Position numbers and translations under genes: made by a program | The notes under the pieces: model-generated | Seen by the model: the letters and a program-made list of their open reading frames with translations, nothing else | Told to the model about the DNA's origin: nothing | The model's database searches: none | Assembly: GCF_040207125.1 (NCBI RefSeq) | Contig: NZ_CP157940.1 | Coordinates: 682,001-746,000 of the forward strand | Source of the DNA: Lacrimispora sp. BS-2 | Lineage (GTDB): Bacteria; Bacillota; Clostridia; Lachnospirales; Lachnospiraceae | DNA: 64,000 bases | Direction of reading: 5' to 3' | Part shown: positions 36,645-63,708 of the stretch, piece by piece | Position numbering within the stretch: the stretch's first letter is position 1 | How the letters are laid out: each line of letters starts with the position of its first letter

Positions 36645-36668
36645 ATACCAGAGGAGAGGATGGACACT

Positions 36669-37433
36669 ATGAATACAATCTTAAAGGTTCAAAACCTTCA
36701 GAAATATTACGGTAACAAAGGGAATGTTACAAAGGCTGTTGACAATATCAGCTTTACTGTTACGGAAGGGGAGTATATCGGGATCATGGGGGCGTCGGGA
36801 AGCGGAAAAACCACCATTCTTAATTGCGTTTCCACCATTGATGATGCGACTTCCGGTCATATTTATATTGACGGAACGGATGTGACTGAGATGAAAGCGG
36901 AAGCCTTGTCAAAGTTCAGACGTGAAAAGCTTGGCTTTATTTTTCAGGACTTTAATCTTCTGGACACCTTAACTGCCCATGAAAACATTGCCCTGGCCCT
37001 GGCAATAATGAAAGCTCCGGCAGGAGATATGGATGAGCGGATCCACCAGGCTGCCTCCCTTTTAAACATCACAGAGGTATTGCATAAATATCCGTATCAG
37101 ATGTCAGGAGGCCAAAAGCAGCGTGTAGCCGCAGCAAGAGCCATCATTACCAATCCAAGCCTGATTCTTGCTGATGAACCTACCGGGGCCTTGGACTCCA
37201 GGTCAGCTAAGATGCTTTTGGAAAGCTTTAAAAATCTTAATGAACAGATCAATGCCGCTATTTTGATGGTGACCCATGATGCTTTTACCGCCAGCTATTG
37301 CAAACGCATTTTGTTCATCAAAGACGGCAGGCTGTTTAATGAGCTGATCCGGGGAAAGGAATCGCGCAAGGAATTTTTTGACCGGATTATGGAGGTTATG
37401 GCCCTTCTTGGAGGTGATTTAAGTGCTGAGTAA
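36669..37433 (+). CDS. ABC transporter ATPase, BceA-like
   Basis: 254 residues: Walker A GASGSGKTT, Q-loop FIFQDFNLLDTLTAHEN, signature MSGGQKQRV, Walker B LILADEPTGALD and H-loop VTHD. It powers the FtsX-like permease to detach or remove peptide antibiotics from their lipid target. ATG 36669 is preferred for spacing; ATG 36660 lies within the ribosome binding region. The 3' end overlaps the permease gene by 11 nt. Confidence 0.92.
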   Translation: MNTILKVQNLQKYYGNKGNVTKAVDNISFTVTEGEYIGIMGASGSGKTTILNCVSTIDDATSGHIYIDGTDVTEMKAEALSKFRREKLGFIFQDFNLLDTLTAHENIALALAIMKAPAGDMDERIHQAASLLNITEVLHKYPYQMSGGQKQRVAAARAIITNPSLILADEPTGALDSRSAKMLLESFKNLNEQINAAILMVTHDAFTASYCKRILFIKDGRLFNELIRGKESRKEFFDRIMEVMALLGGDLSAE

Positions 37434-39399
37434 GCTTGTTTTTAAAAATGTCGGAAAAAGCATGCAGGATTACACGGTATATTTTTTTACTCTTGTATTT
37501 GGCGTTTCTATTTTTTATATGTTTAACTCCATCTATGCACAGCAGGAGATTATGGTAGTGACGGAAATAGTGACCGATTCCATGGTTGCACTTAGAAAGA
37601 TATTATCCGTCATTTCCGTATTCGTTGCAGTAATCCTGGGTTTTTTGATCGTGTATGCAAATAGTTTTTTCATCAGGCGCCGTAAAAAGGAAATGGGTAT
37701 TTACATGACCCTGGGCATGAGCAAAAGTAAAATATCTTCCATTTTTGTATTTGAAACATTTCTCATGGGACTCCTTGCTTTAATTGCCGGCCTGGTAATT
37801 GGTGTTTTCGGCTCCCAGTTTATGTCTGTGTTTACTGCTAAAATATTTGAGGCGGATATGACCGCCTATAAATTCATATTTTCACCAGATGCAGCGGTAA
37901 AAAGCACCCTTTACTTCGCAGTTATTTTTTTAACGGTAATTATTTTCAATACAATTGCAGTAAGCAAGTATAAACTGATTGACTTAATTTATGGCGGACG
38001 AAAAAATGAAAGCTTTAAAATCAGAAGTACCAGAGTATCTGTGCTGGTTTTCCTGGTATCCATTGTTTTCTTAGGAACCGCATATGTACTGGTTTTGAAA
38101 AATGGAATTATCAATATTAACCGTATTTTCCTTTGCTCTATCATTTTAGGAACGGTTGGTTCGTTACTGTTTTTCTTTTCTCTTTCGGGAATCCTTACAA
38201 AGCTGGTACAATCAAATAAGAAGCTGTATTATAAAGACCTGACCATGTTTGTGACCCGTCAGCTTACCAGTAAGATCAACACAAATTTCATATCCATATC
38301 CGTGGTCAGCATTGTATTGCTTTTGGTAATCGGTATTTTTTCAACCGGTTACAGCATGAAAAATATTCTGTCGGCAGATTTAAAAAATACTGCGCCTTAT
38401 GATGTCAGCTTTTATGGCAGCAATGAGGAAGGGAATCATGGGACCATATATGAAAGCCTGCCTTGGGAAATAAAAGATATTGATGCAATTAGCCATGAAT
38501 ATAGTATTTACCGCGGTGACCTTCGTTTCAGGGATCTTCCGGTAGATTTTTCTTCCCTGTCCTTTGATATGGGCAAGCGTGCTCTTAATTTTGTTACGTT
38601 TTCTGATTATCAGAAGTTTTTAGAAATGCAGGGAAAGGAAAAAAACGATCTTCCTGGAAATGAGTATTTCATCATTGCTTCCGGTGACATTTACCAGCAT
38701 ATTGCACAGGAATTTCTTGATAAAAATGTAACAATTACTCTTGGAGATAAAACTCTCCAGCCAAAGGGGGAAGTACAAAACATAAAGCTTTCCAACAGTG
38801 ATTCCGGTATCACATTTGTTGTAAACGATGCGTTCTCTGAAATCCTTGAAAAGTCTGAGGAGCAAGTGCTTAACATGACATGCAAAACAGGGGAAGGATC
38901 AAAGGAACTTCAGGAAAAGCTAAATCAATATAGTAACAGCGAGGATTATCAGGAAAAAGGCTTTTGGTACTATTCAAGCAGGGAAGAAATCTACGCCTCA
39001 TCCATTGCCATGAAAGCCATTATATCCTTTTTAGCCATTTATCTTGGCATTGTGTTTATGGTTGCCTGCGCGGCAATTCTTGCAATCCAGCAGCTTGCCC
39101 AGGCAGCGGATAATAAGGAACGTTATGCATTGTTAAGGAAGCTGGGGGCTGAAAAGAAAATGCTGGACAGAGCATTGTTTGTACAAATACTAAGTTACTT
39201 TTTACTGCCTCTTATGCTTGGCATAGCTCATTCCATTGTTGGGCTTACGGCTGTAAATGATTTAATGAAGGGCTTCGAACATGTGAATGTGATGGACAGC
39301 GTCCTTATTCCGGCAATATTTGTCCTTGTCATCTATGGCGTTTATTTTGGATTGACTTATATCGGGTGTAAACATATTTTAAGAAGGGATCATTATTAA
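37423..39399 (+). CDS. FtsX-like ABC permease, BceB-like
   Basis: 658 residues with ten predicted membrane helices and a large extracytoplasmic domain (~320-530) between helices 7 and 8, the arrangement found in BceB-type peptide resistance permeases. FIRRRKKEMGIYMTLGMSKSK and ERYALLRKLGAEKKMLDRAL are the two FtsX-type coupling regions. The start is GTG behind GGAGGTGATTTAA. The external domain would bind the drug-lipid complex and signal to the kinase. Confidence 0.92.
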   Translation: MLSKLVFKNVGKSMQDYTVYFFTLVFGVSIFYMFNSIYAQQEIMVVTEIVTDSMVALRKILSVISVFVAVILGFLIVYANSFFIRRRKKEMGIYMTLGMSKSKISSIFVFETFLMGLLALIAGLVIGVFGSQFMSVFTAKIFEADMTAYKFIFSPDAAVKSTLYFAVIFLTVIIFNTIAVSKYKLIDLIYGGRKNESFKIRSTRVSVLVFLVSIVFLGTAYVLVLKNGIININRIFLCSIILGTVGSLLFFFSLSGILTKLVQSNKKLYYKDLTMFVTRQLTSKINTNFISISVVSIVLLLVIGIFSTGYSMKNILSADLKNTAPYDVSFYGSNEEGNHGTIYESLPWEIKDIDAISHEYSIYRGDLRFRDLPVDFSSLSFDMGKRALNFVTFSDYQKFLEMQGKEKNDLPGNEYFIIASGDIYQHIAQEFLDKNVTITLGDKTLQPKGEVQNIKLSNSDSGITFVVNDAFSEILEKSEEQVLNMTCKTGEGSKELQEKLNQYSNSEDYQEKGFWYYSSREEIYASSIAMKAIISFLAIYLGIVFMVACAAILAIQQLAQAADNKERYALLRKLGAEKKMLDRALFVQILSYFLLPLMLGIAHSIVGLTAVNDLMKGFEHVNVMDSVLIPAIFVLVIYGVYFGLTYIGCKHILRRDHY

Positions 39400-47607: not shown

Positions 47608-47703
47608 TATCAGTTAAAATAAAGCAGTGTGATTAACAGTGTGATCAGCCGCAGAAGAAGTATTGAAAGACAAAAGAAATTAGAAGGGCCGCCGGGTGAG
47701 AGC

Positions 47704-49107
47704 ATGGTATTTTCAAGCATAACATTTTTATATTATTTTTTGCCTTTGGTCATAGGTGTGTACTTTGTATGCCCGAAGAAGATGAAAAACGGTGTGTTGC
47801 TTTTTTCTTCCCTCATATTTTACGGCTGGGGAGAGCCGGAATACATTATATGTATGGTCATATCCATACTGGTGAATTACATTCTTGGTTTGCTCATAGA
47901 GCGGTACTCCGGTTCGGTATGGGGAAGGAGATGGCTGATTGTTTCAGTGGTCTTTTCTCTGGGAATGCTGGGGTATTTTAAATATGCCGATTTTTTTATT
48001 GCAAACGTCAATTCCCTGACCGGATTTTCGGCCCCAATGTTAAAAGTTGTTCTTCCTATTGGCATCAGCTTTTATACTTTTCAAATTCTTAGCTATACCA
48101 TAGATGTTTACCGTAAAGACACAAAAGCCCAGAAGAACCTGTTATCATTGGCTACCTATGTGGCATTTTTTCCTCAACTGATCGCAGGCCCCATTGTAAG
48201 ATATACTGATATAGCACAGGCTCTTGATAAAAGGGAACACAGCCTTTTAAAAGTTCGCATAGGAATCCGCAGGTTTTTATTTGGAATTTCAAAAAAGGTC
48301 CTGATCGCAAATTCCCTTGGAGAATTGTGCAAAATCTTTGCAGATTCCCAGGAACGAAACGTTTTATTTTACTGGCTTTATGCAGGAGCCTTTACCTTAC
48401 AGATTTATTTTGATTTTTCCGGATACAGTGATATGGCAATTGGCTTAGGCAAGGTGTTTGGCTTTGATTTTCAGGAAAATTTCAATTATCCGTTTATTTC
48501 CAAAAGTATTACTGAATTCTGGCGCAGGTGGCATATGTCTCTGGGAACCTGGTTTAGGGATTATCTGTATATTCCCTTAGGGGGAAACCGTGTTGGCAGA
48601 ATGCGCTGGCTCTTTAATATCTTTCTGGTATGGATGCTGACCGGTTTATGGCACGGTGCCGCATGGAATTTTGTCATATGGGGATTGTTCTTTGCCTTTC
48701 TCCTGATGATTGAGAAGCTGTGGTCTGGCAGTTTCCTTAAGAAAATGCCGGATAGTATTTCTCACGTGTATGTCATGCTTCTTGTTATAATAAGCTTTGT
48801 CATATTTGACGCTCCTGATCTGAGTACATCAGCGGAACGGCTTCGTTCCATGTTCGGAATGAGCGGGCTGCCCCTGACAGGAATCCAGTCAGCCTATTAC
48901 TTAAGAAGCTATTTTGTCATATTTGTCATAGCTATAACAGGAAGCACTGATTTGCCAAGAAGGGTCATAGGCCGTATTCGTGAAACGCCATTTGGAGGGA
49001 TTTTCCTTACTGGGGCAGAGCCTTTGGTATGCGTGCTGCTGCTTTTGCTGACAACGGCATACTTGATCGATGCTTCTTTTAATCCATTTCTGTATTTTCG
49101 CTTTTAA
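47704..49107 (+). CDS. MBOAT-family O-acyltransferase (AlgI/DltB-like)
   Basis: 467 residues, ten or more membrane helices. GPIVRYTDI, SLGTWFRDYLYIPLGGNRVG and MLTGLWHGAAWNF (catalytic His) are MBOAT landmarks. It moves acyl groups across the membrane to an extracellular polymer, normally with an SGNH partner, here the DHHW protein 11 nt downstream. ATG 47704 begins VFSSITFLYYFLPL, the usual start; an in-frame ATT/ATG region upstream to 47629 is not homologous. Confidence 0.9.
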   Translation: MVFSSITFLYYFLPLVIGVYFVCPKKMKNGVLLFSSLIFYGWGEPEYIICMVISILVNYILGLLIERYSGSVWGRRWLIVSVVFSLGMLGYFKYADFFIANVNSLTGFSAPMLKVVLPIGISFYTFQILSYTIDVYRKDTKAQKNLLSLATYVAFFPQLIAGPIVRYTDIAQALDKREHSLLKVRIGIRRFLFGISKKVLIANSLGELCKIFADSQERNVLFYWLYAGAFTLQIYFDFSGYSDMAIGLGKVFGFDFQENFNYPFISKSITEFWRRWHMSLGTWFRDYLYIPLGGNRVGRMRWLFNIFLVWMLTGLWHGAAWNFVIWGLFFAFLLMIEKLWSGSFLKKMPDSISHVYVMLLVIISFVIFDAPDLSTSAERLRSMFGMSGLPLTGIQSAYYLRSYFVIFVIAITGSTDLPRRVIGRIRETPFGGIFLTGAEPLVCVLLLLLTTAYLIDASFNPFLYFRF

Positions 49108-49118
49108 GGAGGGCAGGA

Positions 49119-50225
49119 ATGAAAGATAAAAAAACGAATCGGATTATAGTGACTCTGACAGGAACCCTATGGTTTCTTCTGTCGCTTTCATCATGGCTTT
49201 CACCAACCCATGAGATATCCGCCAGTGAAAGAAGAAAGCTGGCAGGTTTTCCGGAATTTACACTTAAAAGCCTGGTTACGGCAGATTTTATGGAGGGTTT
49301 TGAGCAATACGCCAAAGACCAGTTTCCCTGCCGGTTCTTATTTCGTACCATAAAGGCATACGTCAGGTTTTATCCATTGGGGCAGAAGGATAATAACGGC
49401 ATCTATATTCAGGATGGGTACGCCGTAAAAATGGAATACCCGTTGAATGAAGCCTCCATTGAAAGAGCGGAGGATAAGTTTCGGTATCTTTATGAAAAAT
49501 ACATGGAGGGCAGGAATGTAAACGCTTATCTTACCATTGTTCCTGATAAGGGATATTTTCTTTCAAATGCAAATGGTTATCCCTCTATGGATTATTCGAA
49601 GCTGTTTGAAATGATGAAAACAAATACAGACTTTGCGGAGTATATCGATATATCAGATCTTCTGGAAATTGATGATTATTATAAGACGGATATTCACTGG
49701 AAGCAGGAGAGGCTTACCGGGGTGGCGGATAAAATCAGGAGTATTTTAGGAGAAGAGAAAGAAAGAACCGGAGAATATACGGAAATAGAAGTGGAACGGC
49801 CTTTTTACGGAGTATACTATGGGCATTCCGCCCTGCCGATGAAGCCGGATAAACTAAAATACCTTACCAGTGATCTTATAGATGACTGTACCGTATATAA
49901 TTGGGAGACAGGAAAAACCACAGCAGTGTATGATATGGAAAAGCTTTCGGGAAATGATCCCTATAATGTGTATTTATCCGGCGCAGCGGCCCTTTTGGAA
50001 ATCAGCAATCCTGCCGTAAAAGACGGGAAAGAACTGGTGATATTCCGGGATTCCTTTGGCAGCAGCCTGGCACCCCTTTTGCTTGACGGGTATTCAAAAG
50101 TGACTATGATTGATATACGTTACATTTCCAGTGACCTGATCGGTGATTATATAACCTTTGACGATCAGGACGTGCTTTTTGTATACAGTACTTCAGTATT
50201 AAATTCCAGCGCAATGTTCAAATAG
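49119..50225 (+). CDS. DHHW-family protein (AlgJ/AlgX-like)
   Basis: 368 residues: an N-terminal membrane anchor (~8-26) and an extracytoplasmic domain with TDIHW (D191, H193, W194), the version here of the DHHW motif, and a later IFRDSFGSSLAPLL with the nucleophile Ser region. Such proteins act with MBOAT partners to acetylate secreted polysaccharides. AAGGAGG precedes ATG 49119. It forms a pair with the MBOAT gene. Confidence 0.85.
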   Translation: MKDKKTNRIIVTLTGTLWFLLSLSSWLSPTHEISASERRKLAGFPEFTLKSLVTADFMEGFEQYAKDQFPCRFLFRTIKAYVRFYPLGQKDNNGIYIQDGYAVKMEYPLNEASIERAEDKFRYLYEKYMEGRNVNAYLTIVPDKGYFLSNANGYPSMDYSKLFEMMKTNTDFAEYIDISDLLEIDDYYKTDIHWKQERLTGVADKIRSILGEEKERTGEYTEIEVERPFYGVYYGHSALPMKPDKLKYLTSDLIDDCTVYNWETGKTTAVYDMEKLSGNDPYNVYLSGAAALLEISNPAVKDGKELVIFRDSFGSSLAPLLLDGYSKVTMIDIRYISSDLIGDYITFDDQDVLFVYSTSVLNSSAMFK

Positions 50226-54761: not shown

Positions 54762-55979
54762 ATGAGGAATTTTGAAAAATCCAGTAAGTTAGATCATGTG
54801 TGTTATGATATCAGAGGTCCGGTTATGGATGAAGCGAACCGGATGATTGACCAGGGAATTGATATATTAAAGTTAAATATCGGGAATCCGGCCCCTTTTG
54901 GTTTTCGTGCTCCGGAGGAGCTGCTTAAACAAATGAATGAAAATTTGTCCCATACAGAAGGGTACTCGGATTCCAAGGGGCTTCTTTCTGCCAGAAGGGC
55001 AATCGTCAAATACTGTAAGAAAAAAGGGATTGAGCAGGTCACTGTGGATGATGTATACACGGGAAACGGCGTAAGCGAGCTGATCACGTTAAGCATGCAG
55101 GGGCTGTTAAACTGCGGGGATGAGATTTTAGTCCCTTCTCCCGACTATCCGTTATGGACTGCATCCGTAACTCTTTCAGGCGGAACTGCTGTCCATTATA
55201 CGTGCGACGAAGGGGCAGACTGGTACCCGGATATCAATGATATAAAAAGCAAAATTACAAGCAGGACCAAGGGGATCGTCATCATCAACCCCAACAATCC
55301 TACGGGGACCCTGTATCCAAAGGAAGTTCTGGAGGAGATCGTGGAAATAAGCCGGAAGCATGGGCTGATCATTTTTGCAGATGAAATTTATGACAGGCTT
55401 GTCTTTGACGGCTTAAAGCATGTATCCATTGCCTCCCTTGCACCGGACCTTTTGACCATTACCTTCAATGGCCTTTCTAAATCCCATTTAATCGCAGGAT
55501 ACCGCTGTGGCTGGATGAGTCTTTGCGGCGATAAATCTTTTGCAAAAGGTTATGTGGAAGGGATAAACTTATTATCCTCCATGCGGCTTTGCTCCAATGT
55601 CCCGGCCCAGTCCGTGATCCAGGCTGCACTGGAGATGGAAGAGGAAACTGAAAAATTGATGGTACCGGGCGGGAGAATATACGAACAGAGAGAATACACG
55701 TATCAGGCGTTAAATGAGATTCCGGGAATTTCGGTGGTAAAGCCAAAAGCAGCCTTTTACATGTTCCCGAAGATCGATACCGGTAAATTTAACATTTATG
55801 ATGATGAAAGGTTTGTATTAGACTTTTTAAAGGATAAGAAGATCCTGCTGACTCATGGAGGCGGGTTCCACTGGGAAAAACCGGATCATTTCCGGGTCGT
55901 TTATCTTCCGGAGTTAAACCAGCTGAAACTGGCATGTGACAAGCTGGCGGATTTCATGTCCTGCTACATACAGAAATAG
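54762..55979 (+). CDS. alaA: Glutamate-pyruvate aminotransferase AlaA
   Basis: 405 residues, the same length as E. coli AlaA and similar along the whole chain (KSSKLDHVCYDIRGPV, LKLNIGNPAPFGF, GNGVSELI, INPNNPTGT, FADEIYD and the PLP-lysine region NGLSKSHLIAGYR). It makes alanine from pyruvate and glutamate in the cytoplasm. The ATG at 54762 lies 7 nt after AGAGGAG. The preceding T-box reads Ala, matching the product. Confidence 0.95.
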   Translation: MRNFEKSSKLDHVCYDIRGPVMDEANRMIDQGIDILKLNIGNPAPFGFRAPEELLKQMNENLSHTEGYSDSKGLLSARRAIVKYCKKKGIEQVTVDDVYTGNGVSELITLSMQGLLNCGDEILVPSPDYPLWTASVTLSGGTAVHYTCDEGADWYPDINDIKSKITSRTKGIVIINPNNPTGTLYPKEVLEEIVEISRKHGLIIFADEIYDRLVFDGLKHVSIASLAPDLLTITFNGLSKSHLIAGYRCGWMSLCGDKSFAKGYVEGINLLSSMRLCSNVPAQSVIQAALEMEEETEKLMVPGGRIYEQREYTYQALNEIPGISVVKPKAAFYMFPKIDTGKFNIYDDERFVLDFLKDKKILLTHGGGFHWEKPDHFRVVYLPELNQLKLACDKLADFMSCYIQK

Positions 55980-56035: not shown

Positions 56036-57001
56036 TTAATTCTGCTCCGTAAGCTTAAGATAGTTTTTCAGTTCTCTGTTCCAGCCTGCAAACCGTTCCT
56101 CCTTCCGGTGATCAGCCAGGTCTGTGTGTTCTGACAAGAATTTACCCATATAGTCCGATACTTTTTTTGCTCCAAAGTAGTTTAGGTGATCCCCGTCATC
56201 ACGGGAGTCTTTTGCCCAGTCAATGCCCAGGGTATCAATATCCAAATTTAAGTCAATGTAAGTCAGCTGGTTTTCGTTTGCAAAGGCTGCGGCTGCATTG
56301 TGCTTGGCGTAGGACCAGCACTTTGGCGACGGTGCGCTGTACAGGATCAGCTGGATATCCTTATCCCTGCACAGGTTTACGATTTTATTTAAGTATAGCA
56401 AAGGCTGTTCGTCGATCACATAAACATCCTCTGTTTCCGTAACATATGGCCCGCTCTTGTAAGGATTCACGATTGCGCTGTATTGATATCCCTTATAAAC
56501 CGTGGCAGAATCTGGTTTTATCTTATGGCTTATGGTTTTCAGCATATAAAAGTGAAAATATTTCCAGTTGTCATGGTATTTGTAAATGGGAAATATTTTT
56601 TTCACTGTTTCTTCAATGGAAGTTTCAAGGGAGTTGATATATTTAAAATCCCGGTAAAATGCATTGGTTTCTAAAAAAACAAGGTTTGGGTGCTGGCTTT
56701 TAAGCAGCCGTTCCAGCAAGTAGTAAGTATCCTGCAATTGCTGGCTTGGGACACCGCAGTTATATCCGGAATAGCCGTAAGCATTCCAGACTTCCATGGG
56801 GGAAATGCTGGCACTGCATTCGCTGTCCCCGATTGCCACATAATCTATGGTGTCTTTTGGCTCCTTTAGAATGCCGTTTGCTTTTTTATAAAGGTTATCC
56901 CCCATGTTATTGTAGGGAAGGAGCAGGTAGGAGGTAATGTACAATAGAATAAAAAGTCCGGTTAAAAATAAAATTGATTTAATTCTGTTTTTGCTTTTCA
57001 T
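56036..57001 (-). CDS. SGNH-type extracellular protein (DltD-like position)
   Basis: 321 residues: N-terminal membrane anchor (~9-28) and an extracytoplasmic alpha/beta domain with AIGDSECS (G58-D59-S60, candidate nucleophile Ser) and a C-terminal DDGDHLNYFGAKK holding an Asp-His pair. The organisation is that of DltD/AlgX-type partners of MBOAT enzymes, which accept or donate the acyl group outside the cell. It is the last gene of the seven-gene operon, 11 nt after the MBOAT gene. Confidence 0.75.
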   Translation of the reverse strand: MKSKNRIKSILFLTGLFILLYITSYLLLPYNNMGDNLYKKANGILKEPKDTIDYVAIGDSECSASISPMEVWNAYGYSGYNCGVPSQQLQDTYYLLERLLKSQHPNLVFLETNAFYRDFKYINSLETSIEETVKKIFPIYKYHDNWKYFHFYMLKTISHKIKPDSATVYKGYQYSAIVNPYKSGPYVTETEDVYVIDEQPLLYLNKIVNLCRDKDIQLILYSAPSPKCWSYAKHNAAAAFANENQLTYIDLNLDIDTLGIDWAKDSRDDGDHLNYFGAKKVSDYMGKFLSEHTDLADHRKEERFAGWNRELKNYLKLTEQN

Positions 57002-57012
57002 CTCATCACCTC

Positions 57013-58599
57013 TTAAAATCCGGCATAAATAAGTTTTGCAGGTAAATATCCGTCGCCGTAAGCTCCTAAAACAATGATAAGAAGGATAGCAGCGTAAAGA
57101 AAGCTCCAGCGGGCAAACATATTCCAGCCGGAAATCCTGTCACGGATGGAGATCCCCTGTTCATGGATCAATCCCACTGTGTATACCGCTATAAAACCTA
57201 AAAATACGGCAATGAAATCAGGAAGGGACAGTCCTAACTTAAGCAATGAGCCGTCTGTGACCGCCGACCAGTGAAAGCCGGTGAAAATGGACTGAAACAT
57301 ATTCATTCCTGCGGTCAGGCTATTCGCCCGGAAGAACAGTTCTCCTGTAAACACAATTACAAGCAGTTTAACCGTCTGAAAGCTCCTGTACAAGGCGGAG
57401 GTCCGGCTGATCCTTAAAGCATTAACCATCCTTTGAATCACCGGTTCCAGCAGATTCCCCAATAGAATGAGAACAAAATAATACATTCCAAAGAAAATAT
57501 AATTCCACCCGGTTCCATGCCACAGCCCGTTTAAGATCCATACGCCAAACAGGGCGGCAGAAGAGGAAATGATCTGCCCTAAATGCTTTCCCAATTTGGC
57601 CCGGGATTTCTTTCCCAGATTCTTGACAAATTTGGTTAAGGATATGGGATAAAAAATATAATCCTTTAACCAGGCGCCAAGAGTGATATGCCAGCGTCTC
57701 CAGAATTCCGATGCAGTTTTGGAGAAAAAAGGCTGACGGAAATTTTCGGGGATGGCGATCCCAAACATTTCTCCGGTTCCGATGGTCATGTCAATGCAGC
57801 CTGAAAAATCCGCATATAGCTGAAAGGTATATAAAACGGCTCCGGCAATAACGATGATCCCGCCGTAATGATTGGCGGTATCGAAGATCGTTTCCACAAG
57901 CAGATTAAGACGGTCTGCAATAACAAGCTTTTTAAATAATCCCCACATGATCCGCTGAAGGCCGTAGGTAAGGTTCTTGTATTCCAATGGCTTCCCCTGG
58001 CAGAGGGCTTTTGCAGTCTGAGAGTAACGGCAGATCGGGCCTTCCAAAAGGGTTGGAAAAAAGGAGAGGTACAAAGCCAGTCTGCCTAAATTGTCGTCAG
58101 CCTCTATTTTTTCATAATAAACATCAATCAGGTATGAAATCGCCTGCAGGGTGTAAAAAGAAATCCCAATGGGCAGGGCGAATTTCATGGAAGGCAGAAG
58201 CCTTGGAAAGGATATTGCTTTTAATGCCAGGTTGAAGTTTTCAAAAAAGAAACCAGAGTATTTTAAAATCAATAAAATGCTAAGCTGCAATCCGATCCCA
58301 AGCCATAAGATCCTGCGGCGTTTGGAATCATAGGCTGCTTTTTTTGCCTTTTTATCCTCCGGGGCGTAAGCTGCCGGCATATAGTCTTTTTTGCAGGAAG
58401 CAAGCCATAGACCCATGTGGTGAATGGAAAGGGTAGAAAAAAGCAGATATGCCAGCAGTTTTCCGCTAAAGGAAAGGAAGAAAACATAACTGGCAATCAG
58501 CAGTACTTTATAACGGAAGCTTTGGGGCGCAAGCTGGTAGGCCAGCAATACCACCGGCAAAAAGATGAAAAGGTACAGGAGTGAATTGTAAGCCATCAT
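57013..58599 (-). CDS. MBOAT-family transferase (DltB-like)
   Basis: 528 residues with ~11 membrane helices. YNSLLYLFIFLPVVLLAYQL at the start, LEGPICRYSQ, FWRRWHITLGAWLKDYIFYP and ILNGLWHGTGWNYIFFG (catalytic His) are MBOAT signatures. Next to a carrier protein and an adenylation enzyme, it should move the carrier-bound aminoacyl group across the membrane, as DltB does for D-alanine. ATG 58599 or 58596. It abuts the carrier protein gene. Confidence 0.9.
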   Translation of the reverse strand: MMAYNSLLYLFIFLPVVLLAYQLAPQSFRYKVLLIASYVFFLSFSGKLLAYLLFSTLSIHHMGLWLASCKKDYMPAAYAPEDKKAKKAAYDSKRRRILWLGIGLQLSILLILKYSGFFFENFNLALKAISFPRLLPSMKFALPIGISFYTLQAISYLIDVYYEKIEADDNLGRLALYLSFFPTLLEGPICRYSQTAKALCQGKPLEYKNLTYGLQRIMWGLFKKLVIADRLNLLVETIFDTANHYGGIIVIAGAVLYTFQLYADFSGCIDMTIGTGEMFGIAIPENFRQPFFSKTASEFWRRWHITLGAWLKDYIFYPISLTKFVKNLGKKSRAKLGKHLGQIISSSAALFGVWILNGLWHGTGWNYIFFGMYYFVLILLGNLLEPVIQRMVNALRISRTSALYRSFQTVKLLVIVFTGELFFRANSLTAGMNMFQSIFTGFHWSAVTDGSLLKLGLSLPDFIAVFLGFIAVYTVGLIHEQGISIRDRISGWNMFARWSFLYAAILLIIVLGAYGDGYLPAKLIYAGF

Positions 58600-58827
58600 T
58601 TATTCCTCTTTTAATCGATGGATCATATCCCACATTGCCTTTGCGGAGTTAAAATTAGCGGGTACCATATCCATGGGAGTGATCTCGATGCCAAATGCAT
58701 CTTCAAGCTCCGGAATGAGGGAGAGAATGGAAAACGAGTCTAAAAGCCCTCCGTCAATGAGCCTTGTTTCTGTTTCATAGTCAATACTTGGGTTGATGTC
58801 ATTTAAGATTTCTAATAATTGTTCCAT
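58600..58827 (-). CDS. Acyl/aminoacyl carrier protein (DltC-like)
   Basis: 75 residues, a four-helix carrier protein with GGLLDSFSIL: S31 is the phosphopantetheine attachment site. It would carry the amino acid activated by the adenylating enzyme. The start overlaps the PLP enzyme's end by 16 nt and the stop abuts the MBOAT start. RBS AAGGAG. Confidence 0.9.
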   Translation of the reverse strand: MEQLLEILNDINPSIDYETETRLIDGGLLDSFSILSLIPELEDAFGIEITPMDMVPANFNSAKAMWDMIHRLKEE

Positions 58828-60011
58828 GGTTTCGTCTCCTTAGGTTTAAAATAATTTAAAACATCCGTTTGAACGTGCGGTCTTGCAACCCGGAAATTTT
58901 CTTTTGCAGAATAGAGAAGGATCTGAGGCAAATCCCGGCTTAAAAATAAGGACATGCCTTCAGTTACCGAATAGGCGCCGGTCTTTTGGAAAATAAGCCG
59001 GTCTCCTGACTGAAGGTTCTGGAAGGGGTATTGTTTTACAAGCACATCATTTACCGTGCAAAGAGAGCCGCAGACCGTCCATTCCCTTCTTTCTCCTTCC
59101 CGCTGATTAAAATGAAAGATGGGCGGTTTTTTCATGGCCAGCATTTGCCCGTAATAATTTAGCTGGTGGATACCGCCGTCAACGATACAGTAAGGCTCTT
59201 CTTTGTTTATCTTCCTATCCACCACGCTGGTCACATAAGAACCGCAGGGAGCAGCGAGGAACCGGCCCATCTCCAGTGCGACCCTGCCGCCGAAGGCCAG
59301 CTTTTTGATAAACCCGGCAAGGCCGGTTAACATCTGCTCCTCTTCATTTTTCTCTTCTTCAAAGTAGCAGATGGGAAGTCCGGGCCCATACTCCAGTTTT
59401 TTGACGATAAAGCCGTAATCCTGGTTTAATTCCAGGCAAAATTGGTCCAGCATATGAAGTTCGTTTTCCAATTTGGTTATGGATTTCTTTTGTGTACCGG
59501 AAAAGTACTGGATCCCTTCAATGGTTATAAATTCATGGGTGCCGTCTGCAATGATTTGCCGGATCAGGCTTTCATCCATTCCGAACTGGTTTCCGGAGGT
59601 CAGGCGGAGGAGGACCCGTATGGGGATATGAAGGTTTTCTGAATAAGCAGTAAGAATCTGCCAGTGGGAGAGAGATTCGGCAGTATAAATGATCTCATCT
59701 CCATAGTGTTTTAAGGCATATTCTATGTCCTCAGGCTTCTTATGTACGCCAGACATAACGACTTTCCCCATGTTAATTCCGGCTCTTTCGCAGATGGCGA
59801 ATTCGCCGGGAGAGCAGACCTCAAAGGAATCCACCATTTCTTCTAAATCCTTGATGACAAATGGATTGGCCTTCATGGCATAGCATAATTCTACGTCCTC
59901 TCCAAGAACATCTCTGATTTTTTCCACCTGCATGGCCAGGATATCCGTATCAAAAATGTAGAAGGGGGTTTTATACTCATGAATGGCGTGTTCAAACATT
60001 TTTTCGTTCAT
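58812..60011 (-). CDS. Fold-type III PLP decarboxylase-like enzyme (BtrK-like context)
   Basis: 399 residues of the alanine racemase/Orn-DAP-Arg decarboxylase fold: PLP lysine K47 in CYAMKANP, VCSPGEFA, a phosphate-binding ALEMGRFLAAPCG and the C-terminal beta barrel with GAYSVTEGMS. In this family diaminopimelate and ornithine decarboxylases dominate, but BtrK of butirosin biosynthesis decarboxylates carrier-bound glutamate. Its position between the adenylating enzyme and carrier protein favours action on an amino acid before or after loading (inference). It may instead be a racemase. It overlaps the adenylation gene by ATGA. Confidence 0.85.
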   Translation of the reverse strand: MNEKMFEHAIHEYKTPFYIFDTDILAMQVEKIRDVLGEDVELCYAMKANPFVIKDLEEMVDSFEVCSPGEFAICERAGINMGKVVMSGVHKKPEDIEYALKHYGDEIIYTAESLSHWQILTAYSENLHIPIRVLLRLTSGNQFGMDESLIRQIIADGTHEFITIEGIQYFSGTQKKSITKLENELHMLDQFCLELNQDYGFIVKKLEYGPGLPICYFEEEKNEEEQMLTGLAGFIKKLAFGGRVALEMGRFLAAPCGSYVTSVVDRKINKEEPYCIVDGGIHQLNYYGQMLAMKKPPIFHFNQREGERREWTVCGSLCTVNDVLVKQYPFQNLQSGDRLIFQKTGAYSVTEGMSLFLSRDLPQILLYSAKENFRVARPHVQTDVLNYFKPKETKPWNNY

Positions 60012-61525
60012 GGCTGTTTTCCTTTACACAGTTCCAATAATTTTTTTCTGTCTATTTTGCCGTTTGCAGTAACCGGTAAATCCGGCAGGGGATAAAAGGC
60101 AGACGGAATCATATAAATTGGCAGGGATTCCCTCATCCGCACTGAAATTTCCCTTCCTTCCATATCACCCACATAAAATGCGGCGATCCGGTTCTTTTCT
60201 TCATCAAAGACGCAGCAGGCCCGCTGAATAAGGGGATAGCTGTTTATGACGGCTTCGATCTCTTCCAGTTCTATGCGGTGTCCCATATGCTTGATCTGGA
60301 AGTCCTTGCGCCCGGCAAAGCAAAGCTCCCCGTTCTCATGATAGAAAGCCAGATCACCGGTCCGGTAAATCGTTTCCAGGCAGTGAGTGTTAAGGGGATT
60401 TTGGACAAATGCCCGTTTGGTCTGCTCCGGATTGTTATAATACCCCAACGCCAGAGCTGTTCCAGATACGCAAAGCTCTCCGATCCGGTCTTTTTCGGTA
60501 ACCAGTTTGTCATCCTCATCCAGAAGGAAGACTTTTTCATTGGGAAATGCCTTTCCGATGGGAAGAGTTTCATGTGCTTCAAATTTCCGGTCCACAGGGT
60601 AGTAGGTACAGTTGCATGTGATTTCCGTAGGTCCGTACAGGTTTACGTAACGTGCATCAGGAAGGTATTTCTGCCAGATCGTTAAATGCTTCACAGGCAT
60701 TGCCTCGCCGCTGAATAAGACCTTATTGATTCTGGAGGGAACCTTATAGGTGAACCCCTTTAATTGGGTGATCAGGCACAGAGCGGAGACCGCCCAGATC
60801 AGGGTTGTTACCTGGCGTTCCCACAGGAAGTCAAGAAGTTCCATGGGAATGGAGAATAATTTCTTTGGGATGATGACCATGGTGGCTCCCACTTTAAGAG
60901 TGGAATAAATATCCTTAACAGACACATCAAAGTCAAAGGGGGCCTGGTTCCCGATAATGTCCTGGCCGGTTATGCCGAACATGGAAGGGAAATATTCCAT
61001 AAAATCAATGACCGACCGGTGGCTGACCAATACGCCCTTTGGAACGCCGGTAGAACCGGAGGTAAAGTTGCAGTACAGAGGATCGATATCCAGGGACAGG
61101 CCGCGGATAAGCTTCAAGGGTTCCTCTTTTATTTCGCTTTTTACAATCTCATGGTAGTCAAACAGATTACCGGAAAAATCCACGCCTTTCAGCAGGTTCC
61201 CGGTATCTCCCATGGTAATGATGGAACCGGTATTCAGTACATGAAGAATCTGCCGGATTCGGGCAGCCGGCTGTGCCGGACTGATCAGGACATAGAAGCA
61301 TCCGGCATATACAATTCCCATGAATGCGGTCAATGCCTCTACACTTTTGTCCATAAAAACCACAACAGGGCTTCCTGGTGACTCAAAACCGGAAAGAAAG
61401 CTGCCGATCCCTTTGGCGTTTAATAACAGTTCCTTATAAGAGCAGCTTTTATCCAGGTCTTGTGCAGCAATTTTTTCCGGATAAATGCTTGCAGAGTGTT
61501 CAAGATACTCCAGTACGTTTTTCAT
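60008..61525 (-). CDS. Amino-acid adenylating enzyme (DltA-like/NRPS A domain)
   Basis: 505 residues, a free-standing adenylation domain with A3 TSGSTGVPKGV, A4 FDFDVSVKD (Asp that binds the alpha-amino group), A5 NLYGPTEIT, A7 YRTGDLA, A8 GRKDFQIKHMGHRIELEE and A10 NGKIDRK. It activates an amino acid with ATP and loads it on the carrier protein. Which amino acid cannot be read here. ATG 61525 follows GAGGAG. It is the third gene of the operon, 15 nt after the kinase. Confidence 0.92.
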   Translation of the reverse strand: MKNVLEYLEHSASIYPEKIAAQDLDKSCSYKELLLNAKGIGSFLSGFESPGSPVVVFMDKSVEALTAFMGIVYAGCFYVLISPAQPAARIRQILHVLNTGSIITMGDTGNLLKGVDFSGNLFDYHEIVKSEIKEEPLKLIRGLSLDIDPLYCNFTSGSTGVPKGVLVSHRSVIDFMEYFPSMFGITGQDIIGNQAPFDFDVSVKDIYSTLKVGATMVIIPKKLFSIPMELLDFLWERQVTTLIWAVSALCLITQLKGFTYKVPSRINKVLFSGEAMPVKHLTIWQKYLPDARYVNLYGPTEITCNCTYYPVDRKFEAHETLPIGKAFPNEKVFLLDEDDKLVTEKDRIGELCVSGTALALGYYNNPEQTKRAFVQNPLNTHCLETIYRTGDLAFYHENGELCFAGRKDFQIKHMGHRIELEEIEAVINSYPLIQRACCVFDEEKNRIAAFYVGDMEGREISVRMRESLPIYMIPSAFYPLPDLPVTANGKIDRKKLLELCKGKQP

Positions 61526-61540
61526 AGGTTTTTACTCCTC

Positions 61541-62860
61541 TCAGACTGGTTCGATTGGAAAGGTTATACGGGCTTTGAAATTTGTCCGGTTTTTCTGTAT
61601 CTCAAAGGTACCGTTCATTTGTTCTGCTATTTTCTGACAGGTTTTTAGTCCGATGTTGGTGCTTTCCAAAAACACGCTGTCCTTGCGGATCTCATTGGAA
61701 ATGGTGATGATCAGGTCATTGCCGTTTATATAGCTTTTAACAATGACCGGCCCATCCCCACCGGCATATTTTTTAACATTGGAAAACAGGTTATCAAACA
61801 ACCGCCTTAGATATTGGATATCAGCAGTTATGCTGCATGGCTGCTCTGCAAATTCTGTTTTTACATCAAATCCCAGATTGCCAAGGTCAAACACGTACTC
61901 CATAAATAGCTGCTGGAGCAGGATCTTTGCGTCGAATGTCTCCATCTGCATGAATATCCGTTCCTTGCCAAACACAAGAAAATACTGGAACAGCCGGTCG
62001 GATAAGTCTTTTAACTGAATGGATTTTTCACGGCAGCTTTTTATGTATTTGTCAAGCTGTTCTTCCGAATGGTAGCTTTTTGAATCCAGTATTTCCAGGT
62101 AGCCGATCAGGGAGGTAAGAGGCGTTCGTATGTCATGGGATATGGAAGTAATCAGCTCACTGTTTGCTTCCCAGGCTTCCTTTTCACTTTTATACCTTGT
62201 AATAATGGAATTTCTCATGTTATCCGCGTTTCTTGCCAGAAGGGAAATCTCATCATTTCCTTTATAATAAATCGGCTGCTCCAGATCCCCTTTTTCAATC
62301 AGGGACACCTCTTTTGACAGAAGCATGATCCTGGCGATGATCTGATGGTTATAGATGATCAGGATCACAAACAGAAATAGGAAAAACACTCCCCATGAAA
62401 CATAGAATACCAGGTTATACCATTTTATTTCCGAAGAATCGATGATGGATACGGAATAGATGCCGTCGCTGAATGTGATATCCCGGGTGGCCTCCCAGAT
62501 GTTTTCCTCAATGGAGCCGGCAGGCTCATAGGATGTATAGGCATCATTCCAGAAGCCGGATTCGTAGATGATCTCATCGCCGTTAAAAATAGTTAAGTAA
62601 ACATATTTATGGTTCTTCACCCATTTGGAAATGGAACTTACGTTTTTCACGGATATCTGGTATTTATTGATGTAATGTTCAAAAGAGTTTTGATAATTGG
62701 TCAGCCGTTTCCATGCGGCATCTTCATTCATATGGTTTCTGGATACCAGATAATCACCAAAGGCCTGGGCAGCAAAGTACATCCCAAAGCTGATGATTGC
62801 TCCCAAGATCAATACAAATATTTGTTTATACCTTAAAGATGAGATCCATTTATGCTTCAT
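61541..62860 (-). CDS. Membrane sensor histidine kinase
   Basis: 439 residues: two membrane helices (~13-33 and ~148-172) flanking an extracytoplasmic domain of ~115 residues, HAMP-like linker, HisKA with H242 (SISHDIRTPL) and a HATPase domain with N-box DNLFSNVKKY. The DxGxG box is degenerate, with STNIGLKTCQKI as the G2 region, as in VanS-like kinases. Encoded 15 nt upstream of the adenylation gene, it probably senses envelope stress and controls this operon. Confidence 0.9.
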   Translation of the reverse strand: MKHKWISSLRYKQIFVLILGAIISFGMYFAAQAFGDYLVSRNHMNEDAAWKRLTNYQNSFEHYINKYQISVKNVSSISKWVKNHKYVYLTIFNGDEIIYESGFWNDAYTSYEPAGSIEENIWEATRDITFSDGIYSVSIIDSSEIKWYNLVFYVSWGVFFLFLFVILIIYNHQIIARIMLLSKEVSLIEKGDLEQPIYYKGNDEISLLARNADNMRNSIITRYKSEKEAWEANSELITSISHDIRTPLTSLIGYLEILDSKSYHSEEQLDKYIKSCREKSIQLKDLSDRLFQYFLVFGKERIFMQMETFDAKILLQQLFMEYVFDLGNLGFDVKTEFAEQPCSITADIQYLRRLFDNLFSNVKKYAGGDGPVIVKSYINGNDLIITISNEIRKDSVFLESTNIGLKTCQKIAEQMNGTFEIQKNRTNFKARITFPIEPV

Positions 62861-63563
62861 CGATCTGATAGCCCTTTCCCCAAACGGTTCGTATGATGGC
62901 AGGATTATTAAAATCCAGTTCCAGTTTTTTCCTCAGCTTTAAAATATGTACCATGACTGTATTGGTGGAGGAAGGGAGGAATTTATCGTTCCATACGCCC
63001 TCATAGATTGCCTGTGCATCTTTGGCTTTTCCCCTGTTCCTGACCAGATACATCAAAACCTGGAACTCTGTGTCCGTAAGATCAATTTTTTGATTTTCCC
63101 GGTAAACAAAATGGCCTGCTGTGTCGATCAGAATATCCTGCAGACGGATTTCCGAAATGCCGGAGAGGGGTGTTCCTTTCCCTTTATAGACAACATATCT
63201 TCTTAAAAGAGACCGGACCTTCATGAGCAGCTCTGCCTGTGAAAATGGTTTTACAAGATAATCATCGCCCCCGTTTTCATAGGCCGCTGTTTTATCACTT
63301 TCCTTTGATTTTGCGGTTAAAAACAACACAGGAGCAGAGGATATCCGACGGATCTGGGTACAGGCATCGATCCCTGATAAACCGGGCATCATGATGTCTA
63401 AAATAATAAGATCAATATCAGGATTGCCTGTGACGGCTGCGACCGCATCATTTCCATTTGCTGCTGACCATACGGAATAGCCATTGTTTTCCAGCTGAAT
63501 GCGAAGGACCTCCCGGATGTCTGCATCGTCATCCACTACCAATATCTGCTGTGATGTATTCAT
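62850..63563 (-). CDS. OmpR-family response regulator
   Basis: 237 residues: receiver domain with D11-D12-D13 and phospho-acceptor D56 (ILDIMMPGLSG), Lys in LVKPFSQAEL, and a C-terminal winged helix (DTEFQVLMYLVRNRGKAKDAQ and WGKGYQID). It overlaps the kinase gene by 11 nt. AAGGAGG precedes ATG 63563. The arrangement mirrors DltRS placed ahead of dltABCD in group B streptococci (established for that species). Confidence 0.93.
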   Translation of the reverse strand: MNTSQQILVVDDDADIREVLRIQLENNGYSVWSAANGNDAVAAVTGNPDIDLIILDIMMPGLSGIDACTQIRRISSAPVLFLTAKSKESDKTAAYENGGDDYLVKPFSQAELLMKVRSLLRRYVVYKGKGTPLSGISEIRLQDILIDTAGHFVYRENQKIDLTDTEFQVLMYLVRNRGKAKDAQAIYEGVWNDKFLPSSTNTVMVHILKLRKKLELDFNNPAIIRTVWGKGYQIDEA

Positions 63564-63602: not shown

Positions 63603-63662
63603 ATTATATCATTTATGGATAGAATAACAATGAAATTCAGGGGAATTAAGAATTATTAAGAA
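63603..63662 (-). promoter_or_regulatory. Promoter and direct-repeat operator of the seven-gene operon
   Basis: Minus strand TTGTTA (63625-63630), 16-bp spacer, TATAAT (63603-63608). Upstream lie two 8-bp direct repeats ATTAAGAA (63645-63652 and 63655-63662) at a 10-bp period, about one helix turn, as OmpR-family regulators bind. Autoregulation by the first gene is likely. Confidence 0.6.
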
Positions 63663-63676
63663 ATGGTCCGAGAGTT

Positions 63677-63708
63677 AAAAAAAGACCGGTCAGGAAGAAC
63701 CGGTCTTT
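63677..63708 (-). terminator. Terminator overlapping the YdeI-type gene stop
   Basis: AAAGACCGGT / ACCGGTCTTT arms; on the minus strand a T tract follows (complement of 63677-63682). The gene's stop codon (63690-63692) lies inside the hairpin. Confidence 0.85.

What the first reader, a model, noticed from the sequence alone, without database searches (positions are those of the whole stretch)
56036..63563. dlt-like seven-gene operon with an extra fold-type III PLP enzyme
A two-component system, a free-standing adenylation enzyme, a BtrK/decarboxylase-like PLP enzyme, a DltC-like carrier, a DltB-like MBOAT and a DltD-like SGNH protein are encoded with overlaps or gaps of at most 15 nt. The core has the logic of teichoic acid D-alanylation, but the PLP enzyme between loading and carrier genes suggests that the amino acid is decarboxylated or racemised, perhaps while carrier-bound as in butirosin biosynthesis. 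That would decorate the cell surface with an amine other than D-alanine. I know of no described system with this composition.
Basis: partly seen in the sequence, partly recalled or inferred. Interest (0 to 1): 0.9.

Follow-up and report, generated by a model that had tools for sequence, protein, structure and literature searches.

The report
Dlt-like operon with built-in decarboxylase
Many Clostridia carry a gene set that looks like the machinery for putting D-alanine on the cell wall, but with an extra enzyme that probably turns the amino acid into a different amine first, so their surface may wear an unexpected chemical tag.

Summary
Observation confirmed: seven minus-strand genes (RR, HK, adenylation enzyme A, fold-III PLP enzyme, carrier, MBOAT, SGNH/DltD-like) lie at 56036-63563 with overlaps or gaps of at most 16 nt. 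In the 80 best named relatives, A (79), carrier (75), MBOAT (75) and a DltD-like gene (72) accompany the PLP gene; 64 have A-PLP-ACP-MBOAT-DltD in order.

A does not look like DltA: its pocket code DVKSLSLCNK is nearly invariant, against DLMTLCTV[AC]K in nine DltA-type enzymes, and the host has no DltA over cut-off. The PLP enzyme looks like a decarboxylase, split from LysA and on the side of VinO-type enzymes.

An alpha-thioester has no carboxylate to lose. So A most likely loads a side-chain carboxyl of aspartate (or glutamate), the PLP enzyme decarboxylates it on the carrier, and the MBOAT and SGNH proteins esterify an envelope polymer with beta-alanyl (or GABA). Substrate and acceptor are inferred.

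Against: eight A enzymes with the same code and one near-identical lack a PLP gene in their stretch (three have a formyltransferase-like gene), and A is not VinN-like. Seven paper searches aimed at this composition listed no description of it.

The parts
62850..63563 (-). OmpR/VanR-type response regulator
   Evidence: Response_reg + Trans_reg_C; VanR-type NCBIfam best hit, below cut-off; RR present in 32 of 80 related loci
61541..62860 (-). membrane sensor histidine kinase
   Evidence: HisKA + HATPase_c; VanS best NCBIfam hit, below cut-off
60008..61525 (-). free-standing adenylation enzyme (A); pocket residues D200 V201 K204 S247 L270 S272 L296 C304 N305 K490 (assigned by motif)
   Evidence: TIGR01733 330 bits over cut-off; DltA models 287-306 bits, below cut-off; code conserved
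58812..60011 (-). fold-type III PLP decarboxylase, BtrK/VinO-like; K47 (PLP lysine), C318, T319, D322
   Evidence: best PDB hit BtrK 2j66/7ru7; split from LysA in tree; model pLDDT 88.2 with the fold of this enzyme class
58600..58827 (-). DltC-like carrier protein, phosphopantetheine Ser31
   Evidence: PP-binding over, DltC models below cut-off; Ser31 in 74 of 74 relatives
57013..58599 (-). DltB-like MBOAT O-acyltransferase, His361 in GLWHG, His304
   Evidence: PF03062; TIGR04091 DltB 152.9 bits, below cut-off; His361 in 72 of 75 relatives (3 gaps), His304 in 73 of 75 (2 gaps)
56036..57001 (-). SGNH/DltD-like protein with N-terminal hydrophobic helix; Ser60, Asp268, His272
   Evidence: no Pfam/NCBIfam hit; SGNH fold; Ser60 71 of 72, Asp268 68 of 72, His272 70 of 72
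63603..63630 (-). extended -10 promoter-like site TTGTTA-16-TATAAT, 40 nt before the RR start
   Evidence: 10 of 12 matches, TG before -10; but promoter-like sites in the region are no more than in shuffles (18 found, mean 16.0)
63681..63708 (.). terminator-like hairpin (both strands) at the 3' end of the upstream OmdA-domain ORF
   Evidence: 10-11 pair stem plus T tract; 12 such sites found in the region, shuffle mean 8.8
55881..55895 (-). weak terminator-like hairpin downstream, inside the convergent aminotransferase ORF
   Evidence: 5-pair stem plus T tract

Best explanation
A Dlt-like envelope decoration system with on-carrier decarboxylation. Proposed steps: (1) a phosphopantetheinyl transferase makes the holo carrier (inferred). 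[quoted passage not shown] (3) The PLP enzyme removes the alpha-carboxylate while the residue is carrier-bound, giving beta-alanyl-S-carrier (or gamma-aminobutyryl-S-carrier) (inferred from homology). (4) The MBOAT takes the aminoacyl group across the membrane and, with the SGNH/DltD-like protein, esterifies an extracytoplasmic polymer, perhaps a glycerol-phosphate polymer (inferred). (5) A VanRS-like two-component system controls the operon (inferred from position). Shown here: gene content, conservation, active-site residues, family placement, and that A and the PLP enzyme score below the DltA and LysA cut-offs. The outcome would be a positively charged surface ester like D-alanine, but with a beta- or gamma-amino acid.
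For: Conserved five-gene unit. PLP enzyme nearest to BtrK in PDB by sequence (E 1.1e-29; next, DAPDC, 1.2e-20). 26 system PLPs form one clade (100/100), and five LysA rows are split from everything else (100/99), the system lying on the side of eight decarboxylases with a carrier gene or synteny of VinO. Cys-Thr instead of LysA's Cys-Glu. K47, C318 and D322 in 80 of 80. The host has a separate LysA-like gene, TIGR01048 277.5 bits, just below the 297.9 cut-off. The A code is near-invariant: DVK[ST][LMI]S[LVI]CNK in 35 of 38 rows and DVKS in 77 of 78 named A enzymes, the other being DVKA. A basic residue at the 239-equivalent fits a substrate with a second carboxylate (rule recalled, not from a call). 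Precedents: VinN/VinL/VinO, where thioester formation must precede decarboxylation (PMC11284099); BolO/BolC/BolN (PMC7756342); AfcQ/AfcK/AfcP reconstituted, with free beta-Ala not activated (PMC12186527). The host has one TagB/F-like glycerophosphotransferase.
Against: A is not VinN-like: VinN orthologues identified by synteny read DYYSTTQ--K at the same places. Eight A enzymes with a DVKS..CNK code (L199, L200, L202, L205, L211, L220, L228, L242) and one with DVKSLSLGNK (L231) sit in dlt-like loci without a PLP gene in the stretch fetched (about 3-5 kb either side; L200 is close to a contig end). Seven of these nine genomes have no PLP match at E<=1e-40 anywhere; G081 and G082 have one elsewhere. 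So the loaded residue can apparently be used without this decarboxylase. In three a formyltransferase-fold gene lies next to the carrier gene. The Cys-Thr motif is also in a Sodalis enzyme whose neighbours are IucA/IucC siderophore genes, so it does not prove a carrier-bound substrate. By structure the top match of the model is a lysine/ornithine decarboxylase, BtrK second, with many near ties. The 80 named loci are the best of at least 546 and so lean to close relatives. No acceptor and no biochemical data.
Confidence: 0.58

Rival explanations
1. The PLP enzyme decarboxylates a free amino acid (Asp, Glu) in the cytoplasm, and A then loads the ready-made beta-alanine or GABA on the carrier. 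The surface product would be the same; only the order of steps differs, as with IdnL3/IdnL1 in incednine biosynthesis.
For: IdnL3 makes (S)-3-aminobutyrate from beta-glutamate (PMC11284099). Same-code A enzymes without a PLP neighbour could take the amine from elsewhere.
Against: PLP enzyme is closest in sequence to BtrK and lies on the side of carrier-linked decarboxylases; an invariant Lys in the A pocket is odd for a substrate with only one carboxylate (rule recalled).
Confidence: 0.18
2. The PLP enzyme is a LysA-like or ornithine/lysine decarboxylase working on free diamino acids, and the system makes lysyl or similar esters.
For: Fold and PLP residues are those of the whole family; the top Foldseek hit of the model is a lysine/ornithine decarboxylase (2.9e-27), with BtrK (7.1e-27) and DAPDCs (8.0e-27) nearly tied.
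Against: DAPDC Cys-Glu replaced by Cys-Thr; split from LysA; below the LysA cut-off (147.8 vs 297.9); separate LysA-like gene in the genome; a Lys in the A pocket would repel a cationic side chain (inference).
Confidence: 0.08
3. The PLP enzyme is a racemase/epimerase that supplies or makes a D-amino acid for conventional loading.
For: An Ala_racemase_N match over its gathering score (31.1 vs 24.1 bits).
Against: Decarboxylase Cys318 and Asp322 in 80 of 80; stronger matches to the two decarboxylase domains (54.8 and 53.1 bits); the A pocket lacks the Cys seen at that place in nine DltA-type enzymes.
Confidence: 0.04
4. The locus is a small-molecule or lipid pathway rather than decoration of a wall polymer; MBOAT and SGNH act on a secreted glycan or lipid.
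For: A-PLP pairs occur in polyketide clusters and in an exosortase-type polysaccharide cluster; the acceptor is unknown.
Against: MBOAT scores as DltB-like (TIGR04091 152.9 bits, below cut-off); the seven genes include no PKS/NRPS, exporter or glycosyltransferase; dlt-like gene set.
Confidence: 0.12

Closest known systems
dltABCD teichoic acid D-alanylation
   Same: Free-standing A enzyme, small carrier, MBOAT and SGNH protein in one operon
   Different: Extra PLP decarboxylase; A code DVKSLSLCNK instead of DLMTLCTV[AC]K; A, carrier and MBOAT score below the Dlt equivalog cut-offs; DltD-like protein is short (321 aa) with no profile hit
VinN/VinL/VinO, BolO/BolC/BolN and AfcQ/AfcK/AfcP (beta-aminoacyl units)
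   Same: A enzyme + free carrier + PLP decarboxylase acting on a side-chain-loaded Asp-type residue
   Different: A has another pocket (DYYSTTQ--K in three VinN orthologues); product goes to PKS/NRPS chemistry, not to an MBOAT/SGNH pair
BtrI/BtrK (butirosin)
   Same: BtrK is the closest solved structure by sequence; named L-glutamyl-[BtrI acyl-carrier protein] decarboxylase
   Different: Loading enzyme BtrJ is not an A enzyme (recalled); product is an antibiotic side chain (recalled)
Exosortase A-associated ligase/decarboxylase (TIGR03098/TIGR03099)
   Same: Adjacent ligase and PLP decarboxylase in a polysaccharide cluster, e.g. S. meliloti pSymB
   Different: Window proteins far below the cut-offs (178 vs 478; 188 vs 592 bits); no MBOAT/DltD pair annotated in the stretch seen

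Membership tests
Dlt D-alanylation system | DltA over equivalog cut-off | tested here: not met
   TIGR01734 286.7 vs 559.85 bits; PRK04813 305.7 vs 476
Dlt D-alanylation system | DltA-type A pocket | tested here: not met
   DVKSLSLCNK; nine reference loci L080-L088 (six over the cut-off, one of them only with its pieces joined; three at 513-546 bits) read DLMTLCTV[AC]K
Dlt D-alanylation system | Carrier with phosphopantetheine Ser | tested here: met
   Ser31 in 74 of 74
Dlt D-alanylation system | DltB-like MBOAT with active-site His | tested here: met
   His361/His304 conserved; DltB profile 152.9 bits but below the 375 cut-off
Dlt D-alanylation system | DltD family membership | tested here: inconclusive
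   No Pfam/NCBIfam hit; SGNH fold, DltD 6pfx a Foldseek match at E 1.2e-4, rank 39
Dlt D-alanylation system | D-Ala ester on teichoic acid | not testable with these tools
   needs biochemistry
Diaminopimelate decarboxylase LysA | TIGR01048 cut-off and Cys-Glu motif | tested here: not met
   147.8 vs 297.9 bits; Cys-Thr here, Cys-Glu in 5 of 5 LysA rows
Carrier-linked BtrK/VinO-type decarboxylases | Nearest relatives, Cys-Thr motif, PLP Lys, catalytic Cys | tested here: met
   the motif is shared by one siderophore-cluster enzyme too
Carrier-linked BtrK/VinO-type decarboxylases | Activity on carrier-bound substrate | not testable with these tools
   needs purified holo carrier
VinN-type beta-carboxyl adenylation enzymes | VinN-type pocket | tested here: not met
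   DVKSLSLCNK vs DYYSTTQ--K in three syntenic VinN orthologues
Exosortase A-associated PLP decarboxylase TIGR03099 | Score over cut-off 478.45 | tested here: not met
   178.2 bits

The most novel reading that the evidence does not exclude
Clostridia have a modular set of Dlt-like surface aminoacylation systems in which one carrier/MBOAT/SGNH chassis takes different adenylation codes and interchangeable tailoring enzymes: a carrier-bound decarboxylase here, a formyltransferase-fold enzyme in others, none in others. The window's version would place beta-alanyl (or GABA) esters on the wall; beta-alanyl has the same mass as D-alanyl and could be misread as it.
Probability: 0.42. Interest if true: 0.85.

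Novelty: new variant of a known kind. Interest (0 to 1): 0.72.

Why it matters
D-alanylation is the best known way in which Gram-positive bacteria tune surface charge. In the sampled family only 6 of 200 genomes (one per genus) have a DltA over the cut-off, while 41 of 200 have this PLP type. If the inference holds, about one genus in five of this family decorates its envelope with another amino acid, by a pathway that joins dlt to natural-product chemistry. beta-Alanyl and D-alanyl are isobaric, so mass data alone would not tell them apart. The prediction is directly testable with three soluble proteins.

Tried and rejected
Tried: a strict link 'DVKS code always with PLP gene'. Rejected: 10 of 60 further A loci have a DVKS-type code and no PLP hit. 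One of these (L197) is a lone A at the end of a 3.5-kb contig, and the same genome has a PLP operon cut off at a contig end (L055), so it is probably a split operon. The other nine stand as counter-evidence.

Tried: mutual exclusion of this system and DltA. Not supported: two (G082, G152) of the six genomes with a DltA over cut-off are among the 41 with the PLP protein.

Tried: mapping the VinN residues Asp230/Ser299/Arg331 (named in PMC7756342) on A. My first reading by spacing suggested a shared Ser; the alignment to VinN orthologues does not support a VinN-like pocket, so I dropped it.

Tried: conserved extra genes near the operon (120 loci, 25 largest clusters printed). The commonest non-core cluster was in 14 loci, an ABC-transporter-like protein by one representative, on either strand; the other clusters I judged by eye only. 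Nothing looked like part of the pathway.

Tried: finding AfcP/AfcQ on plasmids; two plasmid searches with the PLP protein showed no Burkholderia among the rows listed (60 of 148 records; 60 of 189).

Paper searches (open-licence papers only; ten in all). Seven were aimed at this composition or its product: 24 papers, 20 listed; 4; 15, 10 listed; 6; 0; 4; 1; no listed title or abstract start describes it. One search gave the VinN/BtrK precedents; (pocket codes) found 0 papers; (lysyl esters) listed 1. I read passages of PMC11284099 (and one whole section), PMC7756342, PMC12186527, PMC11035591 and PMC9338922, and of the rest listings only.

Recalled, supported by no call: the rule on position 239 in Glu and iso-Asp/iso-Glu adenylation domains, BtrJ not being an A enzyme, the role of the DltA Cys (a look for Cys269 in PMC9338922 found nothing).

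Fold searches: for the DltD-like model, DltD is a Foldseek hit (6pfx, rank 39) but is not among the 50 rows shown of the VIA list, which proves nothing either way.

A notebook entry wrongly gives DVKS for 35 of 38; one search shows 34 DVKS and 1 DVKT.
Full report
Observation. Neighbouring ORFs overlap by up to 16 nt or are separated by up to 15 nt. A promoter-like site (TTGTTA-16-TATAAT with a TG) lies 40 nt before the RR start, and a strong terminator-like hairpin at 63681-63708 lies at the end of the upstream gene; promoter-like sites in the region are no more frequent than in shuffles.

What the proteins are. A is an amino acid adenylation enzyme (TIGR01733 330 bits, over cut-off) that resembles DltA (286.7 and 305.7 bits) but fails both DltA cut-offs. 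The PLP protein matches decarboxylase profiles, all below their NCBIfam cut-offs: TIGR03099 178 bits, LysA 148 bits. In PDB its best hit by sequence is BtrK, the L-glutamyl-carrier decarboxylase (E 1.1e-29), ahead of diaminopimelate decarboxylases (from 1.2e-20). By fold the top match is a lysine/ornithine decarboxylase, with BtrK second and many near ties. The carrier resembles DltC and the MBOAT resembles DltB, both below equivalog cut-offs. The last protein has no profile hit; its model is an SGNH fold with PatB and DltD among the matches.

Conservation. A search of 200 genomes of the same family, one per genus, finds the PLP protein at E<=1e-40 in 41 including the host. I fetched the surroundings of all 40 others: A is nearby in 38, ACP in 37 and MBOAT in 30; some losses are contig ends. 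At phylum level it is found in 4 of 398 genomes including the host. Around the PLP gene of these 80: A 79, ACP 75, MBOAT 75, DltD-like 72, RR 32, HK 32. The order A-PLP-ACP-MBOAT-DltD on one strand with gaps under 1.5 kb holds in 64; A and PLP typically overlap by a few bases (median -4, leftmost starts taken). The nearest named relatives include Lachnospiraceae, so the host most likely is one too.

Active sites. Carrier Ser31 74 of 74; PLP Lys47, Cys318, Asp322 80 of 80; MBOAT His361 72 of 75 with 3 gaps; DltD-like Ser60 71 of 72, Asp268 68 of 72, His272 70 of 72. The proteins are therefore conserved as active enzymes.

The A pocket. By motif, the ten specificity positions of the window A read D V K S L S L C N K. 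In 38 rows (window plus 37 loci) 35 are DVK[ST][LMI]S[LVI]CNK; the exceptions are L059 (DAKSAVLGVK) and L065/L073 (IARSCSQASK). In 78 named A enzymes, 77 are DVKS[LMI]S[LVI]CNK and one is DVKAMSLCNK. Nine DltA-type enzymes of the same bacterial family (L080-L088; six over the DltA cut-off, three at 513-546 bits) read DLMTLCTV[AC]K. One substrate, different from D-Ala, is the simplest reading. A lysine at the 239-equivalent fits a second carboxylate in the substrate (recalled rule, not tested).

The PLP enzyme. A tree of 40 rows holds 26 from the system, 3 VinO orthologues found by synteny with glutamate mutase genes, 5 others from clusters with a ligase or carrier gene, 5 LysA and 1 siderophore-cluster enzyme. 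It puts the system in one clade (100/100) and separates LysA from all others (100/99). Long branches are a stated caveat, and the branching among the non-LysA groups is open. The 8 VinO or carrier-linked enzymes and 25 of 26 system enzymes have Cys-Thr (one Cys-Ser) where the 5 LysA have Cys-Glu. The siderophore-cluster enzyme also has Cys-Thr, so the motif points to a substrate whose far end is conjugated rather than strictly to a carrier. The host has a separate LysA-like gene at G000:C1:4295137.

Mechanism. An amino acid bound through its alpha-carboxyl as a thioester cannot be decarboxylated at that carbon. Known A-carrier-decarboxylase trios load the side-chain carboxyl: VinN/VinL/VinO with 3-methylaspartate (PMC11284099, passages and one section), BolO/BolC/BolN with aspartate (proposed; deletion of bolN not rescued by beta-alanine; PMC7756342, passages), AfcQ/AfcK/AfcP with L-aspartate, reconstituted in vitro, where AfcQ does not activate free beta-alanine (PMC12186527, passages). 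I therefore propose Asp (or Glu) loading by the side chain, on-carrier decarboxylation, and MBOAT/SGNH transfer to an envelope polymer. How DltB and DltD share the work in the model system is itself debated (PMC11035591 and PMC9338922, passages). The host has one glycerophosphotransferase of the TagB/F family, so a glycerol-phosphate polymer is possible; the acceptor is not shown.

Results against it. (1) A does not carry a VinN-type pocket: the three syntenic VinN orthologues read DYYSTTQ--K, so side-chain loading cannot be argued from VinN homology. (2) Among 60 further free-standing A loci, picked because they were not in the PLP set, 10 have a DVKS-type code but no PLP gene in the stretch. 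One is a contig fragment (L197). L200, L202 and L211 carry a Formyl_trans_N gene beside the carrier gene (L200 lies near a contig end). L205 has a beta-eliminating-lyase-family gene upstream. L199, L220, L228, L231 and L242 show no extra ORF between A and the carrier. Of the nine genomes other than L197's, seven have no PLP match at E<=1e-40 and two (G081, G082) have one elsewhere. In a tree of 176 A enzymes the DVKS-type rows form one clade (123 rows, 0.999); eight PLP-less ones lie in a ten-row sub-clade (0.812) with PLP-bearing L068 and L069, and L220 lies among PLP-bearing rows. So the PLP step was apparently gained, lost or replaced more than once while the code stayed. This is compatible with a loaded residue that can be used undecarboxylated or N-formylated, but it also leaves room for the rival in which the enzyme only supplies a free amine.

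Wider picture. The same 60 loci show 20 A enzymes with DAK-type codes, 8 with SM..LALDIK (no Asp235-equivalent), 4 with DNLSLCLD, 6 of the DltA type, 10 DVKS-type and 12 others, many with ACP, MBOAT and DltD-like neighbours. The family thus holds several dlt-like classes. Two genomes (G082, G152) have both a DltA over cut-off and the PLP protein; G082 also has the formyltransferase version (L202), which argues that the versions do different things.

Novelty. The parts and the A-PLP-carrier trio are known; I found no description of their union with an MBOAT and an SGNH protein in seven searches aimed at it, which cover open-licence papers only and of which I saw listings. I rate it a new variant of a known kind.

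Noticed in passing
L183-L242: Genomes of the same family hold several further dlt-like operons (A-ACP-MBOAT-DltD) with non-DltA pocket codes: DAK-type (20 of 60 loci), SM..LALDIK lacking the Asp that binds the amino group (8 of 60), DNLSLCLD (4 of 60).
   Followed up: partly
L200:5-850, L202:3425-4303, L211:3559-4440: A Formyl_trans_N (PF00551) gene lies beside the carrier gene in dlt-like operons whose A has the window's type of pocket code.
   Followed up: partly
L059:5716-9057: PLP decarboxylase fused in frame to a low-complexity linker, a hydrophobic stretch, Ig-like domains and a transglutaminase domain (1114 aa), beside A, ACP, MBOAT and DltD-like genes.
   Followed up: partly
L162:11040-15026: Four tandem DltD-like genes behind one A-PLP-ACP-MBOAT set.
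   Followed up: no
L065, L073: PLP-bearing operons whose A enzyme has code IARSCSQASK, without the Asp that binds the amino group; a different substrate is likely.
   Followed up: no
window 47629-50225 +: A second MBOAT with a DHHW-family partner, about 6 kb from the operon; probably an ordinary polysaccharide O-acetylation pair (function inferred).
   Followed up: partly
window 36660-39399 +: ABC ATPase plus FtsX-type permease, possibly a peptide-sensing or resistance transporter (for the permease; function inferred).
   Followed up: no
L181, L246: Streptomyces plasmids carry a PLP decarboxylase, A enzyme, carrier and holo-ACP synthase next to ectoine genes; an unfamiliar cluster.
   Followed up: no
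MT836540.1, MT837917.1, MT837947.1, MT837966.1, MT839496.1: Unannotated 'Bacteriophage sp.' faecal contigs encode A enzymes 41-57% identical to the window's; probably bacterial DNA in a phage collection.
   Followed up: no
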